From the NCBI GenBank assembly GCA_043822065.1, contig JBDRCC010000004.1, forward strand, positions 1-23,487: a DNA stretch of 23,487 nt, in the 5' to 3' direction. The position numbers and the translations under genes are program-made. Source of the stretch: JBDRCC01 sp043822065 [NCBI: archaeon] (GTDB lineage: Archaea; Undinarchaeota; CAZHTU01). Shown here piece by piece: positions 4,060 to 23,374 of the stretch (position 1 is the first letter of the stretch; each line of letters begins with the position of its first letter). Under the pieces are notes generated by a model. The model was not told the DNA's origin and did no database searches. It saw nothing but the letters and a program-made list of their open reading frames with translations.

Positions 4060-4152
4060 TGGCGGGCCTGGGGGGATTTGAACCCCCGACCTAAGGTTGT
4101 TTCCCTTAGTCGGTAGGAAACCTTCGCTCTATCCAAGCTGAGCCACAGGCCC
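4060..4152 (-). tRNA. tRNA-Arg (anticodon CCT) with a 15-base intron and encoded CCA
   Basis: The minus strand folds into a complete cloverleaf. The acceptor stem is GGGCCTG with CAGGCCC, the D stem GCTC with GAGC, the anticodon stem AAGGT with ACCTT, and the T arm GGGGG-TTCAAAT-CCCCC. The discriminator is G and the CCA end is encoded at 4060-4062. The anticodon loop is 22 bases long. Removing 15 bases after position 37, the canonical archaeal site, leaves TT-CCT-AA with anticodon CCT at 4115-4117. A20 in the D loop agrees with arginine identity. A weak TATA-like GATATACT lies about 30-40 bases upstream. Confidence 0.93.
4099..4113 (-). other. tRNA intron at position 37/38
   Basis: The 15-base insert lies after A37 of the tRNA-Arg. 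TTCCT on the 5' side can pair with AGGGA of the intron, giving a short central helix next to the anticodon stem with bulges at both splice points. This is the bulge-helix-bulge arrangement cut by archaeal splicing endonuclease. The exact boundaries assume the canonical 37/38 site. Confidence 0.8.
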
Positions 4153-17091: not shown

Positions 17092-17409
17092 CTATACAAA
17101 GGCTACGACTTTGCCGACGCGCCAGAGTACCCAGCTTGTAAAGACAAGCCCGGAACCGATAGCGACATCACTAGCGGTAACCAGTGCGGAGAATCCGCCC
17201 GGAAGGGTTATGCCAGTGGTCAGCAACAGGTATGCAGCAGATGCAGAGATCAGGAAGACCATTACGGCCTGCCCGGTCGGTATGCCCGCGAACTTGGCCA
17301 GCACGATGAATACCACCGCGAAGACAAGTATGTATAGCGGGACGTTGAATGCAACAAAGTTTGTTGCAACCGCGTCAACTGCATTTATTATCGCTGTGTA
17401 AAGCGCCAT
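17092..17409 (-). CDS. Small three-helix membrane protein, possible filament subunit
   Basis: A 105-residue, strongly hydrophobic protein with three membrane segments at about 22-42, 48-68 and 78-100. A small-residue-rich loop (AKFAGIPTGQAV) lies between the first two, and there are only three lysine or arginine residues. No family motif is certain. Small, highly expressed hydrophobic proteins beside pilus ATPases can be VirB2/TrbC-like filament subunits, but channel or accessory roles are equally possible. High expression is suggested by a consensus TATA box (TTTATAAA), a hairpin at the 5' end of the leader, GGGGTGA seven bases before the ATG and a strong terminator. Confidence 0.72.
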   Translation of the reverse strand: MALYTAIINAVDAVATNFVAFNVPLYILVFAVVFIVLAKFAGIPTGQAVMVFLISASAAYLLLTTGITLPGGFSALVTASDVAIGSGLVFTSWVLWRVGKVVAFV

Positions 17410-17416
17410 TTGTTTT

Positions 17417-17489
17417 TCACCCCTTGGTGTTTAATACCACTATTAGGTGGTAACACACACCAGTTATAGGGTATTTTGATGTTTATAAA
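17417..17489 (-). promoter_or_regulatory. Promoter and nested-hairpin leader of the three-helix protein gene
   Basis: TTTATAAA at 17482-17489 is the TATA box; transcription would start near 17460. The first 36 bases of the leader form a nested inverted repeat: GGTGT...ACACC outside and ACCAC-CTAATA-GTGGT inside, with a symmetric 5-base internal loop (17426-17461). GGGGTGA at 17417-17423 follows as ribosome binding site. The fold may protect the 5' end or act as an operator. Confidence 0.6.
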
Positions 17490-17517
17490 TCTTTCGCTAA
17501 TCGGTTTATAAGTAGGA

Positions 17518-17856
17518 TTATCCGCCGCCGTGTATCATCGGCTTGACGACGGTCAGGGCGATTACGATGAAGGTCACTGTCCTGTTCTGGCAGAACATCT
17601 GAACCCCTGCCATCAGGATGAGCATGCCCAAAATCTGGACGGGGAGCTTCTTCGCGCCCATGTAGACCGAGAGCCCTACAACTGTGACTATGATGATTAC
17701 CATGCTGGTGTTGAAGACGCAGATTCCCTGGAGCCTGGCGCCGACATGGAGCGAACCGAGGAATCCCCCGCCTGCCGTGTACGGCGAGGGCGGGTTGAAT
17801 GCCAGCAGTGGCACTGCAAGCAAAAGGAACATCAGAGGTATTATCAGCTTTCGCAT
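17518..17856 (-). CDS. Small membrane protein with signal peptide, VirB2-like topology
   Basis: A 112-residue protein. Residues 1-19 (MRKLIIPLMFLLLAVPLLA) look like a cleavable signal peptide. A Gly-rich polar stretch (FNPPSPYTAGGGFLGSLHVG) follows, then hydrophobic helices at about 49-68, 74-90 and 93-106, with a short basic GAKKLPVQ turn between the first two. Signal peptide, exposed segment and two helices joined by a basic turn is the outline of VirB2/TrbC-type conjugative pilins and of the archaeal DNA-import pilins related to them. I infer similarity from topology only. Two cysteines (C46 and C89 by my count) may pair. TTTAAATA about 25 bases upstream gives it its own promoter. Confidence 0.7.
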   Translation of the reverse strand: MRKLIIPLMFLLLAVPLLAFNPPSPYTAGGGFLGSLHVGARLQGICVFNTSMVIIIVTVVGLSVYMGAKKLPVQILGMLILMAGVQMFCQNRTVTFIVIALTVVKPMIHGGG

Positions 17857-17893: not shown

Positions 17894-18007
17894 TCAGTGC
17901 TTGAAGCAGGGGTGGGTTGCGTAGCAAGCCCTGCAAAGCTGCGCCCCGCAGACCATGCAGGTGACTACCGCGGCTTCCTTGCTGCACGATTGGCAAATCA
18001 TCTTCAT
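17894..18007 (-). CDS. 37-residue B-box-like zinc-finger protein
   Basis: A very short gene that reads MKMICQSCSKEAAVVTCM, then VCGAQLCRACYATHPCFKH. Of 37 residues, seven are Cys and two are His. The spacing C-x2-C-x8-C-x2-C-x4-C-x2-C-x3-H-x-C-x2-H closely resembles a B-box or cross-brace zinc finger that holds two zinc ions. The ATG overlaps the stop codon of the upstream pilin-like gene (ATGA), so it is the last translated member of the filament operon. A cytoplasmic protein-protein or assembly-control role is possible. The Cys/His pattern and the coupled start make real coding very likely despite the size. Confidence 0.72.
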   Translation of the reverse strand: MKMICQSCSKEAAVVTCMVCGAQLCRACYATHPCFKH

Positions 18008-18399
18008 GGGTAGATGTATATCTGCGGCTGTGTTACGGAAAACCCATCTGATATTTTAGTCTTTCCATTATCCAGCTCGAGCGAGAATGAAACGCTTGAG
18101 GGGCTTATGGAGTAGTTCATGGCGAACTGGCAGTTCCTTTCAGCCATCCTCTGCCCGAAGTAGGCTTCCAGCTCGCCGAGGTTTGATTCCAGCCGCTGGT
18201 AAAAGTCAGATTGGCTCGAGCTCTGGGAGTAGGATATTTCAACCGCCCGGAGGCACTCCTGCTCTATGTTGCTGAGGACCATGCCAACGTCGTCCGCTTC
18301 GCCGGAGTACTCGTGCAGGTAGAGCTGGGAGAAGAAAACTGCCAGCAGGAACATTGCGGCGAATATCGTGCTTACCAGGTAGAACTGCGCCCTTACCAT
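18004..18399 (-). CDS. Pilin-like protein with class III-type signal
   Basis: A 131-residue protein with a short N-terminus, MVRA-QFYLVSTIFAAMFLLAVFF. A basic residue followed by Ala and then Gln and a long hydrophobic helix is the form of archaeal prepilin signals, with likely cleavage after A4. The exported domain has a charged helical half (GMVLSNIEQECLRAVEISYSQ, LGELEAYFGQRMAERNC) and a strand-rich end (SVSFSLELDNGKTKISDGF). C49 and C93 (approximate) may form a disulfide. It overlaps its upstream neighbour by 7 bases and its downstream neighbour by 4. It is probably a minor pilin. Confidence 0.75.
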   Translation of the reverse strand: MVRAQFYLVSTIFAAMFLLAVFFSQLYLHEYSGEADDVGMVLSNIEQECLRAVEISYSQSSSQSDFYQRLESNLGELEAYFGQRMAERNCQFAMNYSISPSSVSFSLELDNGKTKISDGFSVTQPQIYIYP

Positions 18400-18752
18400 A
18401 TTGCCACCCTAACCTCGGTAGGCTCGAAGGTGTCAGCCAGCCCGACGACAAAGTAGGAAACGGTTGCGGAAGAGCCAACTACTGCAGGCCCGTAAGCGTC
18501 CACGCTGAGGGAATTCCGTATCTCCACCCGGAAGTGCCTGCTGATGCAGGGGTCCAGCTCGGCGTAAAGCCCCTCTGCGGAAGGCTCCGGGAAGACGTGC
18601 GCCCTCAGCCTGCCGCTCATGTCAAGGGACTGGAGCGCATCGTATGCGTCGGTGGTATCTATGCTTGAGTACGCTGGCACCACGAATATTGAAAGGAATG
18701 CTATGAGGAAGATGCCAGCGATTGCCGCCTCTATCGTCTGTATCATCACCAC
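18393..18752 (-). CDS. Pilin-like protein
   Basis: A 119-residue protein. MVMIQTIEAAIAGIFLIAFLSIFVV gives a single N-terminal hydrophobic helix with a lone Glu at residue 8, in the place of the conserved early Glu of type IV pilins (fifth residue if cleaved after M3), although no basic residue precedes it. The rest is an exported domain with strands (FRVEIRNSLSVDA, SATVSYFVVGLADTF, TEVRVAIW). It overlaps the beta-helix gene by 7 bases upstream and the next pilin-like gene by 7 bases downstream. It is probably a minor pilin or pseudopilin; the family is not recognised. Confidence 0.72.
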   Translation of the reverse strand: MVMIQTIEAAIAGIFLIAFLSIFVVPAYSSIDTTDAYDALQSLDMSGRLRAHVFPEPSAEGLYAELDPCISRHFRVEIRNSLSVDAYGPAVVGSSATVSYFVVGLADTFEPTEVRVAIW

Positions 18753-19879
18753 ACCTCCACGATTACGCTTGACGTCTCGTTCCCAGCTACCGCGAGCCGC
18801 CCTGCTGAGTAGACGTTCCCGCTGGGGAAGCCTGCAGTCCGCGTGTCGGCGCCGCTGAAGTATGACACAACCCTAAAATTCCTTCCTTCGAGTGAGAGTT
18901 CGCGCGCCAGGTCCCCTTCAGATATGGAGGTAATGTTGTTTAGGTACCCCATGTCAAGCGTGCCGGTCTTGCCCAACAGAACGATTTCGTCAAACCCTAC
19001 TTCCTCAAGGTTATAGGCGACGCCACAGAGGGAGACGTTCTGGCCCATCCGATACCTTCCTGCGCGGATGAACTCTGCTGAGTCTGATATCCAGACGCCC
19101 CGCAGGTTCTCCGAGAGCGGCTCAACTATGAATTTGTAGGTGCAGTCTGCGGGGGAATACGCCCCTGTGTAGAGGGTTGAGTACTCTGACAGCTCTTCCG
19201 GCAGGGTGAATCCAGACACTTCCAGCTGGCATTCCCCGCTCCCGCCTTGGCCGCCTCCGCCGCCTGGCTCGTTGCAGAAGTTTGTGTTGCCGCTGACGTC
19301 GTTGCCTTCTGCCTCTGCGACAGTAGTGTCGCAGTCTGCCTTTAGGTTGCCGTCGATGGTGTTTCCGGTGACATAGAGTGTGCCGCCCCTAAACTCAACG
19401 TTCCCGTCGACATAGTTGTCCCGTATGTAGTGTGTTTGCGAGCTGTCCGACCATACCTTCACGTTCCCGTCGACGGAGCTCTCATTTACCTGCAGGGAGC
19501 CGCCACGCACCTCGACATTGCCGTCAATCGTGCTCGACAGAATGGTGAGCAGCCCGCCGTTCACTTTGACGTTGCCATCTACCTCGCAGTCCTGGATGAG
19601 GACGTTCTTGTCTGAAAGCATGATATTGTGGTTTATGGTTTCCCCGATGTAGACGACGTCATACTCGATCTCCGGCTGGCAAGACTCCGCAGGGTAGTCC
19701 AAGGCGAGCTGGATTGATACCCGGTCAACCTCTGCATTTGCTAAGAGTATGCCTGCTGCGGCTTCTGCCTGCGGGCTGATGTCCGCCCGTTCGAAGAACG
19801 CAATCGGGTAGAAAAAGGCATACATCAGGACTGCGACAAAGAGCGCAAACGAGAGGACGAAGTCTATTGCTGTTTTCAT
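18746..19879 (-). CDS. Pilin-like surface protein with a beta-helix domain
   Basis: A 377-residue protein in four parts. Residues 1-29 are a pilin-like N-terminal helix (MKTAIDFVLSFALFVAVLMY). Residues 30-90 are helical, then strands. Residues 92-202 contain six repeats marked DGNV, DGNV, DGNV, DGNV, DGNL and SGNT at 101, 119, 137, 158, 176 and 195, a period of about 18 residues. The pattern is that of a right-handed parallel beta-helix, similar to bactofilin-like rungs. A Gly-rich linker (PGGGGGQGGSGE, 205-216) leads to a C-terminal beta-rich domain (217-377) with several possible N-glycosylation sites. Position between the platform protein and two minor pilins suggests a tip or adhesin subunit of the filament. 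The domain combination is one I have not met. Confidence 0.82.
   Translation of the reverse strand: MKTAIDFVLSFALFVAVLMYAFFYPIAFFERADISPQAEAAAGILLANAEVDRVSIQLALDYPAESCQPEIEYDVVYIGETINHNIMLSDKNVLIQDCEVDGNVKVNGGLLTILSSTIDGNVEVRGGSLQVNESSVDGNVKVWSDSSQTHYIRDNYVDGNVEFRGGTLYVTGNTIDGNLKADCDTTVAEAEGNDVSGNTNFCNEPGGGGGQGGSGECQLEVSGFTLPEELSEYSTLYTGAYSPADCTYKFIVEPLSENLRGVWISDSAEFIRAGRYRMGQNVSLCGVAYNLEEVGFDEIVLLGKTGTLDMGYLNNITSISEGDLARELSLEGRNFRVVSYFSGADTRTAGFPSGNVYSAGRLAVAGNETSSVIVEVW
19276..19579 (-). repeat. Coding repeats for six beta-helix rungs
   Basis: The stretch encodes residues 101-202 of the beta-helix protein, with DGNV-type turns every 18, 18, 21, 18 and 19 residues. At DNA level GTTCCCGTCGAC-like words recur (plus-strand sense) but the copies have diverged, so this is an old protein repeat and not a recent tandem duplication. 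Confidence 0.75.
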
Positions 19880-19880
19880 T

Positions 19881-20702
19881 TTAGCCGAACGTGAACCATG
19901 CGAAGGCGGCGGCGGCCATCGACATCAGGATGAAGGAGTGCATCAGCCCTGCTTTGTAGTTGGATTCGCTCAGCCTGCCGGTTATGAGCCCGGTGAAGAA
20001 GGCCTGTATCAGGGCGATGTGAAGGAAAAGGTTGGGGGGTATCTGCGCCGGCGATAGGAACTCGCTTGTAACTACAAGCGGCATGAGGAACTTCTGCAGG
20101 GTTCCGAGGACGACGAGGAATATTATGAAGATGATGTAGTTTGTCACGAGGTAGCCCCGGAACCTGGACTGGACCTCCTTCTCAAGCTCGCCAATCGTCC
20201 TTGCCATCCTCGCGATGCTTAGGAAAATCTCCGAGATGTCCCCGCCGGCTTCGTTTGCCTCGCGGACTATCTGGACTATCTGAGAAATCGCCTTGTCGTT
20301 GATCCTCTTCGAAAAGCTCTCGAGCGCCTGGGTGACTGTCTTCCCGAGCATGAGCTGGTTGTTTATCCGCCGGATTTCGTCGTTGAGGTAGCCATAGTCC
20401 TCGCTTGCGGACGCCTTGATTGCGGCGATCAGGGGCATGCCGGCGCGGCGGGCCTCGGCAATGTCCCTTAGCAGGAGCGGGAACTCCTCAGAGATTTTTT
20501 TCTTGCGGAGGTGCACGAAGTAGAGCATCACCGAAACCGGCGCTATAAGGATTAAGCCGGCGAGGACGAGCAAGTAGGTGAAGACCTTTCCTGGATAGAA
20601 GCCGACAACGGCTATGGCTGAGATGACAGCCGCAAGGGCGACGCTGGAAAGGACTACGTGCAGGTTCCTTCCGGCAAGCCATTCCGCCCTCGGCTTTTTC
20701 AT
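19881..20702 (-). CDS. Type II/IV secretion platform protein (TadC/GspF family), second copy
   Basis: A 273-residue inner-membrane platform protein with a T2SF domain. Two N-terminal helices (about 16-35 and 40-62) are followed by the cytoplasmic helical bundle: EFPLLLRDIAEARRAGMPLIAAIKASA at 78-104, LGKTVTQALESFSKRI and IVREANEAGGDISEIFLSIA. Two or more C-terminal helices close the protein (LVTNYIIFIIFLVVLGTL, FLHIALIQAFFTGLITGRL, ILMSMAAAAFAWF). It would form the membrane base on which the ATPase assembles pilin-like subunits. Its start overlaps the stop of the first platform gene by 4 bases. Paired TadB/TadC-type platforms are usual for Tad and several archaeal pilus systems. Confidence 0.9.
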   Translation of the reverse strand: MKKPRAEWLAGRNLHVVLSSVALAAVISAIAVVGFYPGKVFTYLLVLAGLILIAPVSVMLYFVHLRKKKISEEFPLLLRDIAEARRAGMPLIAAIKASASEDYGYLNDEIRRINNQLMLGKTVTQALESFSKRINDKAISQIVQIVREANEAGGDISEIFLSIARMARTIGELEKEVQSRFRGYLVTNYIIFIIFLVVLGTLQKFLMPLVVTSEFLSPAQIPPNLFLHIALIQAFFTGLITGRLSESNYKAGLMHSFILMSMAAAAFAWFTFG

Positions 20703-21556
20703 TTTATCTCCTGGAGGATGATGAGGAATATCAGATTCAGTACCGGGAGCACAAAGTAGACGAGGAACTTCATTACCATGTCAATCTGCATGCCTGCCAG
20801 CTGGGACCAGACCATGCTCATTGTCGACAGCCCGACGAACACCAGGAGCGGGCCGCCGATTAGGACGACGGAGTATGTCTCAGCTATTATGTTCAGCTTG
20901 TCCGAGATTACCCTCTGCTCAATCTTAAAGTCGGTTACTGCGCTTTCTGACGACTCGTAGAAAAACGCCTTGAGGTTGCCGCCGGAGCGGATGACTGCGT
21001 TGAGGCTGAGCAGGAGCTCCGCAAACCGCTTTGAGGGGGTGGAGCGGGCGACGCGCTTCATGGCAGTGGTAAGGTCCACGCCGAAGGAGTCTATGTAGTG
21101 CTGGACTTTCCTCGACTCGACAGTCAGCTCGCCGTAGTCAGTTTTCGCAAGGAGCCTGAAAATCGATGCCGGCGCGACGCCTGATGAGGCTATGGTCGCG
21201 GCGTGCATCATCGCAAAAGGCAGGTTCCGGTCAATGTCATTCGCCCGCCTCTTGGCGCGTGAATACGGGTATATTAGGAACACAAGGTAGGACAGCACGC
21301 CGATAAAAACCCCGCATATTGCGGAGAACAGCACCGCGAAGAACCCGACCGTCGCGTAAAGCAGTGGGAAGCTGAGGATTAGCGAGACCATCCCGATAAG
21401 GAATGACGTCAGCAGGGCGAGGGAGAGGTAGATCTCGAGCAGCATCTGGATGTTCGCCTGCCGGATGTCCCGCTTTAGGTTTGCGTACTGAGTAGCGTGC
21501 CTCTTCGCAGTCTTTCCAAAAATCCTGCGCGAGAGCGCCACATACTGAGGTATCAT
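20699..21556 (-). CDS. Type II/IV secretion platform protein (TadB/GspF family), first copy
   Basis: A 285-residue platform protein. Hydrophobic segments at about 38-62 and 65-96 precede the T2SF helical bundle: IDRNLPFAMMHAATIASSGVAPASIFRLLA (113-142), STPSKRFAELLLSLNAVIRSGGNLKAFF and IEQRVISDKLNIIAETYSVVLIGGP. Two C-terminal helices follow. The RSGGNLKAF block corresponds to the EAGGDISEI block in the partner platform protein, showing the two are related. The start overlaps the ATPase stop (ATGA) and the end overlaps the second platform gene, so all three are translationally coupled. Confidence 0.9.
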   Translation of the reverse strand: MIPQYVALSRRIFGKTAKRHATQYANLKRDIRQANIQMLLEIYLSLALLTSFLIGMVSLILSFPLLYATVGFFAVLFSAICGVFIGVLSYLVFLIYPYSRAKRRANDIDRNLPFAMMHAATIASSGVAPASIFRLLAKTDYGELTVESRKVQHYIDSFGVDLTTAMKRVARSTPSKRFAELLLSLNAVIRSGGNLKAFFYESSESAVTDFKIEQRVISDKLNIIAETYSVVLIGGPLLVFVGLSTMSMVWSQLAGMQIDMVMKFLVYFVLPVLNLIFLIILQEIK

Positions 21557-23028
21557 TTGGCCTGGGTGTGGACTTCCTCCATTGATAGGTGCCTGTCGAG
21601 CGTGCCCTTTCTGTACTTGTCAAGCAGCTTTGCAAACTCAACGAACTCCAAGTCCCCGCGGGAGAACATCTTCTCGAGCGCCTCCTTCTTCCGTTTCAGC
21701 TCCTTCTTTATTTCGCTGTCAGTGACGCCCTTCTTGGAGGCGAGCTTCCGTATAAGGCGGGACTCCCTGCCTGAGTCGAATGTGTCGCTCACCGGCGACC
21801 AGCGGTAGACGTCCTGGAATATCGGCTTCCCGCTCTTCTGGTCGATTGCCTCAACCTCGTCAATCTCCTTTACCCGCCGCGCCCACTTGTTTTTTATCCT
21901 GCTCTGCTCAACGATTATCGCGATGTCAAGGACGCTCACAAGGTCTGCGCTGAGGTTTATCGGCGACGTCGTGAGCCTTTGGATTGCTGAGTCAAGCGAG
22001 TCCGCGTGCATCGTGCCCATCGAGGCGTGCCCTGACGCCATCCCCTGGAACAGGACGCTTGCCTCCTCGCCCCTGACCTCGCCGACGATGACGTAGTCCG
22101 GGCGCTCCCTGAAGCTCTCCTTCAGGAGGTCAAACATGCTGACCTCGCCGTACTTCCTGCCGCTCTCGTCCGGCGGGCCGAAGCCAGTCCGCGAGGTCGC
22201 AGGCACCCAGTTGGTGTGCGGGAGGTTGAGCTCACGGGTGTCCTCTATGCTGACAATCTTCATTTCCTTGGGGATGAAAAGCGAAAGCGTGTTCAGGAGC
22301 GTCGTCTTGCCCGTCGCGGTCCCGCCGCAGATCAGGATTGACGACCGGTTCTCAATCGCCTCCCAGAGGTAGGCGAGCATCTCGGTGTCCAGCATGCCTG
22401 ACGAGACCAGGTGAGACGGAGTGAGCGGCTTCTTCCGGAATTTCCTAATGGTGAATGTCGAGCCGCGGGTGGTTACCTCGTTACCGTAGCTCGCCTGCAC
22501 CCTTGAGCCGTCCGGAAGGCGCCCGTCCATGAGCGGCTCTGCGACTGAGATGTACCGGTTGCAGCGCTGGGACACCATGACGACAAACGAGTTCAGCGCG
22601 TCCTCGTCGTCAAAGTGGAGGTTTGTCTTGAGGGTCCCAAAGTCCCTGTGGTTGATGAATATCGGAATCTTCAGCCCGTCGCATGATATGTCCTCTATGA
22701 ACGGGTCCTGCATGAGCGGCTCGATTATCCCGAGCCCCGTGAAGTCGCGGAACAGGTAGTAGAGGTACATGTCCATCCGCTCCTTCGGGATGGCAAGGCC
22801 GAGCTCGCCGACGATGCGCATGATTTCGGAGTTTAGCTGCTGCCTTGCGGAATTCGCATCCTTGATTGCCAGCAGGTTTATCTCGGTCAGCTCGACTACC
22901 GCCTCCTTTATCTGGTCGATGGTTTTTTTGTCCCAGTCAGTCAGCTTCGGCTCCTCCACGAGGTAGTGGCTGCGCTCAGGGTAAATCTTTGCCTGCGCAA
23001 ACTTCGGGACGAGCGGATAGCTATGCAT
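21553..23028 (-). CDS. Type II/IV secretion (pilus assembly) ATPase, VirB11/TadA/GspE family
   Basis: A 491-residue ATPase that powers filament assembly or secretion. The N-terminal domain spans about 30-190 (IIEPLMQDPFIEDISCDG at 101-118 is typical). The RecA-like domain shows Walker A GGTATGKT (235-242), Asp box IEDTRELNLPH (261-271), Walker B DYVIVGEVRGEEA (311-323) and His box GHASMGTMHAD (333-343). The last 100 residues form a charged helical tail (KKELKRKKEALEKMF). All catalytic residues are present. The gene sits upstream of two platform genes in the same operon and overlaps the preceding pilin-like gene by 8 bases. Archaellum, pilus or secretion use cannot be told from the ATPase alone; the neighbours favour a Tad-like pilus. 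Confidence 0.94.
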   Translation of the reverse strand: MHSYPLVPKFAQAKIYPERSHYLVEEPKLTDWDKKTIDQIKEAVVELTEINLLAIKDANSARQQLNSEIMRIVGELGLAIPKERMDMYLYYLFRDFTGLGIIEPLMQDPFIEDISCDGLKIPIFINHRDFGTLKTNLHFDDEDALNSFVVMVSQRCNRYISVAEPLMDGRLPDGSRVQASYGNEVTTRGSTFTIRKFRKKPLTPSHLVSSGMLDTEMLAYLWEAIENRSSILICGGTATGKTTLLNTLSLFIPKEMKIVSIEDTRELNLPHTNWVPATSRTGFGPPDESGRKYGEVSMFDLLKESFRERPDYVIVGEVRGEEASVLFQGMASGHASMGTMHADSLDSAIQRLTTSPINLSADLVSVLDIAIIVEQSRIKNKWARRVKEIDEVEAIDQKSGKPIFQDVYRWSPVSDTFDSGRESRLIRKLASKKGVTDSEIKKELKRKKEALEKMFSRGDLEFVEFAKLLDKYRKGTLDRHLSMEEVHTQAK

Positions 23029-23374
23029 TTTCTATTACTACGGTGTTTTTCCCCTCCCTGAGGTTAAAATTTCCCATGTTTATATTGGTTTCTCTCTCGA
23101 GTGTGCTGTCGCCTGAAACGCACTGGACAACATTCCAGCGGACGAGTATTGTGTAGCCGCCCTGCGGAAGGTCAATTGAGTATTCAGTCCGGTCAAATTT
23201 TGAGTAAGCGGAGTACGCCTCTGTGAGCTCGGACACCACCTTTGGGAGGACAATGTCGCACGGCTCCTTTGAGACCTTGCGCTCAAGCCCTGCGAAAAGC
23301 GTGAACGCGAACATCATTATCACGACCCCGAACAGGACGATGAACACGTGGTCGAGGATTGCCCTAGAATTCAA
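23021..23374 (-). CDS. Pilin-like protein, TTG start
   Basis: A 117-residue protein with the prepilin-like start MNSRA-ILDHVFIVLFGVVIMMFAFTLF: basic residue, Ala, an acidic residue soon after, and a long hydrophobic helix. The exported part has an amphipathic helix (LPKVVSELTEAYSAYSKF) and strands (GYTILVRWNVVQCVSG, GKNTVVIENA). Two cysteines (C39 and C85 by my count) may form a disulfide. The start codon is TTG at 23372-23374; a stop codon two codons upstream and the lack of any ATG before the helix leave no alternative. GGTGGTG just before serves as ribosome binding site. The gene overlaps its neighbours on both sides. Confidence 0.75.
   Translation of the reverse strand: MNSRAILDHVFIVLFGVVIMMFAFTLFAGLERKVSKEPCDIVLPKVVSELTEAYSAYSKFDRTEYSIDLPQGGYTILVRWNVVQCVSGDSTLERETNINMGNFNLREGKNTVVIENA

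What the first reader, a model, noticed from the sequence alone, without database searches (positions are those of the whole stretch)
18746..19879. Pilin-like protein carrying an 18-residue-rung beta-helix and a second extracellular domain
The sequence shows a pilin-type N-terminal helix joined to six regularly spaced DGNV/DGNL/SGNT turns (18, 18, 21, 18, 19 residues apart), a Gly-rich linker and a separate beta-rich domain. Bactofilin-like and right-handed parallel beta-helices have rungs of this length. A beta-helix delivered on a pilin stem inside an ATPase/platform operon suggests a new filament tip or adhesin class. The fold and role are inference.
Basis: partly seen in the sequence, partly recalled or inferred. 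Interest (0 to 1): 0.66.

Follow-up and report, generated by a model that had tools for sequence, protein, structure and literature searches.

The report
Pilin-like protein carrying a beta-solenoid
A pilus operon of an uncultured archaeon encodes a pilin-like protein with a predicted stack of short beta-strand coils beside its membrane anchor, probably a binding module shown on the pilus; bacteria have comparable "modular pilins", so the principle is known, though this archaeal combination may be new.

Summary
The gene is real, on the minus strand (19879 to 18746, 377 aa). Shuffles never exceeded a chain of two. AlphaFold2 on one sequence predicts a beta-solenoid (residues 70-206 alone: pLDDT 92, pTM 0.86). 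The solved structure with the lowest rmsd is Thermus bactofilin (1.7 A over 95-96 residues). The gene is fifth of seven tightly packed genes with a pilus ATPase and two TadC halves. In related archaea the matching place holds a small pilin. Among 21 such proteins none has a DGN chain, one carries a LamG and one an FG-GAP module. Best reading: a modular, ComZ-like pilin-like protein that displays a ligand-binding solenoid. Bacterial modular pilins, and ComZ with a solenoid inserted in a pilin, are published, so this is a new variant, not a new class. Against: the canonical prepilin motif is absent, its best stem matches (L013, L018) were not seen beside pilus genes, and residues 217-377 have no usable model. 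Topology, filament entry, tip position and ligand are inferred.

The parts
18746..19879 (-). P0001, 377 aa pilin-like protein with beta-solenoid
   Evidence: ORF and translation
19790..19876 (-). N-terminal hydrophobic helix, residues 2-30
   Evidence: helix in the model; 19-residue hydropathy mean above 1.4 for windows starting at residues 1-14
19271..19657 (-). predicted beta-solenoid, residues about 75-203
   Evidence: models; fold matches; DGN periodicity
19232..19267 (-). Gly-rich linker, residues 205-216
   Evidence: sequence
18749..19231 (-). C-terminal region, residues 217-377, fold unknown; ends in ...VIVEVW, like many pilin A proteins
   Evidence: low pLDDT; no Pfam match; weak C-terminal match to the pilin A profile
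19881..20702 (-). TadC half 2 (T2SSF, 63.5 bits)
   Evidence: Pfam
20699..21556 (-). TadC half 1 (T2SSF, 47.6 bits)
   Evidence: Pfam
21553..23028 (-). pilus/secretion ATPase, ArlI/GspE2-like
   Evidence: Pfam T2SSE 121.2 bits; closest solved structure 2oap; NCBIfam FlaI model 387.6 bits, under its cut-off of 550
23021..23374 (-). 117 aa pilin-like protein before the ATPase
   Evidence: weak similarity to the gene at the same place in L001 (3 of 1000 shuffles reach it) and L003 (9 of 1000)
18393..18752 (-). 119 aa pilin B-like protein
   Evidence: similarity to L175 (2 of 1000 shuffles), weaker to L164 (19) and L179 (41)
18004..18399 (-). 131 aa pilin C-like protein
   Evidence: similarity to pilin C of L164 (0 of 1000 shuffles), L175 (7), not L169 (151)

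Best explanation
P0001 is a modular, minor pilin-like subunit of an archaeal type IV filament. A hydrophobic N-terminal helix anchors it in the membrane and could pack into the filament. A rigid beta-solenoid of about seven short rungs follows the helix and is joined by a Gly-rich linker to the C-terminal region, so that the solenoid would stand out from the filament. As a bulky, probably rare subunit encoded directly after the platform genes it is most likely at or near the tip, where a solenoid face binds a ligand, such as a glycan or protein on a partner cell. Shown here: the gene, the repeats, the operon. Predicted: helix and solenoid. Inferred: extracellular side, entry into a filament, tip position, rarity and ligand binding.
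For: Operon with ATPase and two TadC halves, genes overlapping by 4-8 bases or one base apart. Solenoid model pLDDT 92.4, pTM 0.86. Rungs show recurring hydrophobic positions, an Asn at the same turn place in each, and an outward position reading K-E-K-E-K (that it faces outward is inferred). Downstream pilin C-like gene homologous to that of the L164 pilus operon. Stem (residues 5-103) similar to the start of L013 (0 of 1000 shuffles) and L018 (1 of 1000). In the corresponding place other archaea have modules on pilins: LamG in L172 (3.1e-19) and FG-GAP in L174 (3.5e-42). Precedent: ComZ and modular pilins.
Against: No canonical prepilin site, whereas 15 of 19 relatives compared have one near the start. 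The pilin A profile matches P0001 only weakly (probability 9.8%; E 0.001 in a set of ten sequences), and P0001 does not match L165 (151 of 1000 shuffles) and only weakly L169 (17 of 1000). Its best stem matches lie in stretches where no TadC gene was seen. The window ATPase groups with archaellum-type ATPases and L152 rather than with the ATPases of L001-L003 and L068. No homologue carrying both stem and solenoid was found. Nothing here shows expression, assembly or binding.
Confidence: 0.55

Rival explanations
1. ComZ-like DNA receptor: the solenoid-bearing pilin-like protein catches DNA for uptake or exchange instead of binding a cell surface.
For: ComZ has the same general architecture, sits in a pilin locus and binds DNA although its solenoid shows no clear positive patches (passages of PMC6561018).
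Against: The solenoid here is acidic (net charge about -12 over residues 75-203). ComZ's DNA-binding lysines lie between its domains and have no identified counterpart here. LamG in related pilins points to glycan or protein ligands.
Confidence: 0.13
2. Self-association module: solenoids of neighbouring filaments or cells stack end to end, as bactofilins polymerise, and bundle pili or make cells stick to each other.
For: Bactofilin filament structures have the lowest rmsd (6rib, 1.7 A), and a self-associating bacterial protein (4kh3) ranks second in both fold lists. Bactofilin is the best Pfam match (E 1.2e-4).
Against: The Pfam score (22.7) is under the family's cut-off (27.9). A shared fold shows no function. 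The solenoid is tied at both ends to other parts of the chain, which could cap it.
Confidence: 0.13
3. Not a filament subunit: a membrane-anchored surface or assembly protein that shares the operon and an anchor helix but never enters the filament.
For: No canonical prepilin site (read). Best stem matches L011, L013 and L018 were not seen beside TadC genes.
Against: Position between TadC2 and two pilin-like genes, where other archaea keep a pilin. ComZ, which has a pilin fold, was also missed by a pilin motif program.
Confidence: 0.13
4. The solenoid is an AlphaFold2 artefact; residues 75-203 are disordered or fold otherwise.
For: AlphaFold2 gives confident but unrealistic solenoids for perfect repeats of random sequence (abstract of PMC11795689); both models here used a single sequence. 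Five Asp stack at one turn position.
Against: The repeats are imperfect, with a 21-residue rung. Hydrophobic residues recur at the same rung positions and the K/E position alternates in sign. Pfam Bactofilin matches the sequence independently of the model, under cut-off.
Confidence: 0.06

Closest known systems
ComZ of Thermus thermophilus (PMC6561018; abstract and passages read)
   Same: Pilin-like stem plus a beta-solenoid within one chain; N-terminal hydrophobic helix (5-27 in ComZ, 2-30 here); not recognised as a pilin by its N-terminal motif; encoded among pilins
   Different: ComZ's solenoid is about 380 residues and inserted between the last two strands of the pilin sheet; here about 130 residues of regular 18-21-residue rungs directly after the helix. 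No ComZ chain appeared in the sequence search of solved structures at E up to 10, and none is among the fold rows shown, which excludes nothing
Modular pilins such as PilB and PilC of Streptococcus sanguinis (PMC8179133; passages read)
   Same: A bulky module not specific to pili carried by a minor pilin; a lectin module in PilC resembles LamG seen in archaeal relatives
   Different: The published census used a bacterial N-terminal motif and the word archaea does not occur in the paper's text; there the pilin module comes first with the extra module after it and a canonical signal, absent here
Bactofilin (PF04519; structures 6rib, 6ria, 2n3d)
   Same: Solenoid fold with rungs of similar length; rmsd 1.7-2.4 A over 86-99 residues
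   Different: Score under the Pfam cut-off; here attached to an N-terminal membrane helix in a pilus operon, while bactofilins are known as cytoplasmic polymers (recalled)
LamG- or FG-GAP-bearing pilin A proteins of related archaea (L123, L124, L125, L172, L174)
   Same: Pilin-like start with an added module; L172 and L174 come from ATPase/TadC operon regions
   Different: Another module; in L123 and L125 it sits near the C-terminal end of the pilin domain, here near the N-terminal end. L123-L125 were not shown to lie beside TadC genes

Membership tests
Type IV pilin (class III signal) | N-terminal prepilin peptidase site of the [KR][GA]Q type before the hydrophobic helix | tested here: not met
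   Start reads MKTAIDFVLS; 15 of 19 relatives compared have such a site near the start. A relaxed site cannot be excluded. So it is called pilin-like, not a canonical pilin
Type IV pilin (class III signal) | N-terminal hydrophobic alpha-helix | tested here: met
   Helix 2-30; hydropathy
Type IV pilin (class III signal) | Incorporation in a filament | not testable with these tools
   Needs filament preparation
Archaeal pilin A family (profile A4, built here) | Significant match to the family profile over the pilin domain | tested here: inconclusive
   hhalign probability 9.8%, 25 columns of the helix; hmmsearch E 0.001 in ten sequences, helix and C-terminal end only
Modular pilin | Pilin module joined to a module not specific to pili | tested here: inconclusive
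   Solenoid module predicted; pilin module supported by helix, gene position and stem similarity to L013/L018 only
[quoted passage not shown]
   Order here is helix, solenoid, linker, C-terminal region, but the C-terminal region has no usable model
ComZ | Sequence similarity to ComZ | tested here: inconclusive
   Not among the four chains listed at E up to 10; phmmer misses distant relatives
Bactofilin PF04519 | Score over the curated cut-off | tested here: not met
   22.7 bits for the domain, 15.4 for the whole protein, cut-off 27.9
Bactofilin PF04519 | Bactofilin-like solenoid fold | tested here: met
   6rib Z 12.9-13.2, 1.7 A over 95-96 residues; tied in Z with pectate lyases and 4kh3; on a predicted model
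Bactofilin PF04519 | Polymerisation | not testable with these tools
   Needs protein

The most novel reading that the evidence does not exclude
The gene after the split TadC pair is a module-acceptor slot of DPANN-type archaeal pili, in which LamG lectin-like domains, FG-GAP propellers and, here, a bactofilin-like solenoid are swapped in as tip receptors that decide which partner cell or surface is bound. The solenoid version would be an archaeal, short-rung counterpart of ComZ that arose independently, perhaps from secreted bactofilin-like proteins.
Probability: 0.25. Interest if true: 0.68.

Novelty: new variant of a known kind. Interest (0 to 1): 0.45.

Why it matters
How small host-dependent archaea recognise partner cells is largely unknown, and their pilins are hard to annotate (a passage of PMC9563170, tells of genomes with TadA, TadB and TadC but no annotated pilins). 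A recognisable gene place in which binding-type modules are exchanged would let pilus specificity be guessed from sequence and tested with purified modules. It would extend the modular-pilin idea, surveyed with a bacterial motif, to archaea.

Tried and rejected
Tried without gain: no whole genome is held for the window. Pattern scans found no relatives with the single ATPase in genome contigs or in viral contigs. PHROGs gave three weak matches, best E 0.0024; plasmids one weak match (E 0.02); phages none. Foldseek had no match at E up to 0.001 in PDB or among viral models, so the fold claims rest on VIA-align, a second look at Foldseek's own candidates. Two early scripts failed to find the ATPases in the first 20 regions (in 18 of 20, in 20 of 20, through a wrong option); one search repeated this properly.

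Searches with the full protein, misses included: 0 of 4 genomes (E up to 1); 8 of 156 (E up to 0.1; each covers only part of the protein); 4 of 40 (E up to 0.1, partial, one with stops); 1 of 342 (E up to 1e-4, L011 again); 1 of 19 (in a different repeat protein without a pilin-like start); 0 of 6; 1 of 87 (in a 393 aa secreted-looking protein). Genomes overlap between calls, and single-sequence searches can miss diverged copies. The solenoid alone matched 9 of 392 genomes of the Archaeoglobus phylum; several of these are secreted-looking solenoid proteins, none a recognised pilin. Pfam Bactofilin in the 156-genome phylum: 4 genomes at E up to 0.001, 1 over the cut-off. I did not settle the window's phylum. 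In a 34-sequence ATPase tree (FastTree, no support values printed) the window falls with L152, L156, L160 and archaellum-type ATPases, apart from L001-L003 and L068.

Selection told: the 21 slot proteins come from 44 regions (L001-L003, L068, L073-L092, L162-L181) and were picked by eye. The other 23 regions had no pilin that I recognised in that place, were cut short or held other systems. In L164, L170, L174 and L175 the pilin is not the first gene after TadC2, and in L179 TadC2 was not detected. L169, L176 and L178 are longer than usual with no module named by Pfam, so an unrecognised module there is possible; the DGN test sees only this repeat type. Of the first set of 20 regions only L068 was kept; many of the rest have a KaiC-like gene after the ATPase and no readable pilin. 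L123-L125 come from 16 regions fetched because the open frames were long.

Rejected: pectate lyase (fold only, no sign of a catalytic site looked for or found); KdpC similarity of the C-terminus (E 0.12); LiaX (19.9 bits against a cut-off of 350). Print: no paper describing an archaeal solenoid-bearing pilin appeared; these are word searches of open-licence papers, mostly seen as listings.

Full report
Observation. The ORF lies on the minus strand from 19879 to 18746 and encodes 377 residues. Its ATG follows the TadC2 stop codon by one base. DGN/SGN turns start at 101, 119, 137, 158, 176 and 196. In 20,000 shuffles the longest chain was 2, and the lag-18 self-similarity exceeds 2,000 shuffles.

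Structure. AlphaFold2 on the single sequence gives a helix at 2-30 and strands of a solenoid from 75 to 201; residues 25-73 and 204-377 are mostly under pLDDT 50. Residues 70-206 alone have mean pLDDT 92.4 and pTM 0.86. VIA-align puts Thermus bactofilin (6rib_A, Z 13.2, 1.7 A over 95 residues), 4kh3, 4wa0 and family 3 pectate lyases within 1 Z of each other; with the domain alone a family 3 pectate lyase is first (1ee6, Z 13.4, 3.0 A over 134) and 6rib has Z 12.9, 1.7 A over 96. Bactofilin is thus closest by rmsd, over fewer residues, but tied in Z. Handedness was not measured; right-handed is inferred from the top matches and from the poor fit (rmsd about 11 A) of left-handed acyltransferases such as LpxA (the handedness of those families is recalled). 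Pfam Bactofilin matches the domain under its cut-off (22.7 against 27.9 bits). AlphaFold2 is known to invent solenoids for perfect repeats (abstract). Here the repeats are imperfect; in the five rungs tabulated, three positions are hydrophobic in all five, Asn is constant at one turn position, and one position reads K-E-K-E-K. A stack of five Asp at the turn is the odd feature.

Genomic setting. Seven genes run on the minus strand from 23374 to 18004, overlapping by 4-8 bases or one base apart: 117 aa pilin-like, ATPase, TadC1, TadC2, P0001, 119 aa and 131 aa pilin-like. ATPase and both TadC halves are over their Pfam cut-offs. In related archaea several operons read ATPase, TadC, TadC, then a small pilin A, pilin B (a start such as GFxxxLEAV) and, in some, pilin C (a start such as KGQFYI). 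The window's 131 aa gene is similar to pilin C of L164 (0 of 1000 shuffles), less to L175 (7) and not to L169 (151). Its 119 aa gene is similar to pilin B of L175 (2), less to L164 (19) and L179 (41). The stem of P0001 is similar to L013 (0) and L018 (1), weakly to L169 (17) and not to L165 (151). L013 and L018 were not seen beside TadC genes. A pilin A profile built from 11 members matches in 148 of 156 genomes of the phylum from which it was mostly made, but matches P0001 only weakly. The window ATPase groups with archaellum-type ATPases, L152, L156 and L160, not with those of L001-L003 and L068; L152 belongs to the operon of L164. So the place of P0001 as 'pilin A' rests mainly on gene order.

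Module exchange. Of 21 slot proteins picked by eye from 44 regions, none has a DGN chain. Sixteen are 145-211 aa long. L172 carries a LamG domain (3.1e-19) and L174 an FG-GAP propeller (3.5e-42). Three more pilin A members carry LamG (L123 8.1e-12, L124 2.6e-28, L125 7.2e-8) but were not shown to lie beside TadC genes. L185 has a pilin-like start, read by eye, and a NosD-type stretch under its cut-off (9.9e-5), which may be another beta-helix pilin. Secreted-looking bactofilin-like solenoids exist in archaea (L143, L148 over the Pfam cut-off), so a donor is conceivable.

Mechanism. The helix enters the filament, the solenoid is held out as a rigid arm, and the protein decorates or caps the tip and binds a ligand. 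Shown: gene, repeats, gene order. Predicted: helix and solenoid. Inferred: topology, filament entry, tip, ligand. The missing prepilin motif (15 of 19 relatives have it) is a real objection, though ComZ was also missed by a pilin motif program.

Known work. ComZ (PMC6561018, abstract and passages) has a large beta-solenoid inserted in a pilin fold, is argued to sit at the tip and binds DNA. Modular pilins (PMC8179133, passages) show 264 architectures in a census based on a bacterial motif. In the archaeon Mia14 some LamG-like proteins are linked to type IV pilus loci (PMC5498576, passages). Archaeal pilus systems were surveyed in PMC4858521 (abstract and passages), where the term beta-helix does not occur. 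The principle is known; the archaeal, bactofilin-like version was not found in my paper searches.

Verdict. A new variant of a known kind, of moderate interest; the bold reading is an exchangeable receptor slot on archaeal pili.

Noticed in passing
L123:583-1839, L124:1291-2511, L125:930-2123, L172:2321-3832, L174:1367-3166: Archaeal pilin A-like proteins with LamG (four) or FG-GAP (one) modules.
   Followed up: partly
L185:195-1478: Pilin-like start followed by a NosD-type stretch (E 9.9e-5, under cut-off), upstream of a short pilin B-like gene: possibly another beta-helix pilin.
   Followed up: partly
L011:1495-2181, L013:1087-1914, L018:1495-2154: About 220-aa pilin-like proteins without a canonical prepilin site, whose stems are most like P0001; L013 and L018 lie beside a membrane protein that looks like an archaeosortase (label recalled).
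   Followed up: partly
L081, L086, L087 (pilin B genes); L178:3221-5758: Pilin B proteins of 370-850 aa with large middle regions that Pfam does not name in those tested (L081, L086, L178).
   Followed up: no
window 4060-4152: tRNA-Gly (TCC) gene 93 bases long, longer than usual, perhaps with an intron.
   Followed up: no
window 17092-17856: Two small hydrophobic proteins (112 and 105 aa) just downstream of the operon, with no family over cut-off; possible extra pilus or secretion parts.
   Followed up: no
L139, L140, L142: DGN-type repeat proteins in genomes of the Archaeoglobus phylum; L139 is 946 aa with no Pfam match.
   Followed up: no
L168:2160-3575 (reverse strand of the locus): A large enzyme gene that looks like RuBisCO (recalled) directly follows a TadC pair.
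   Followed up: no
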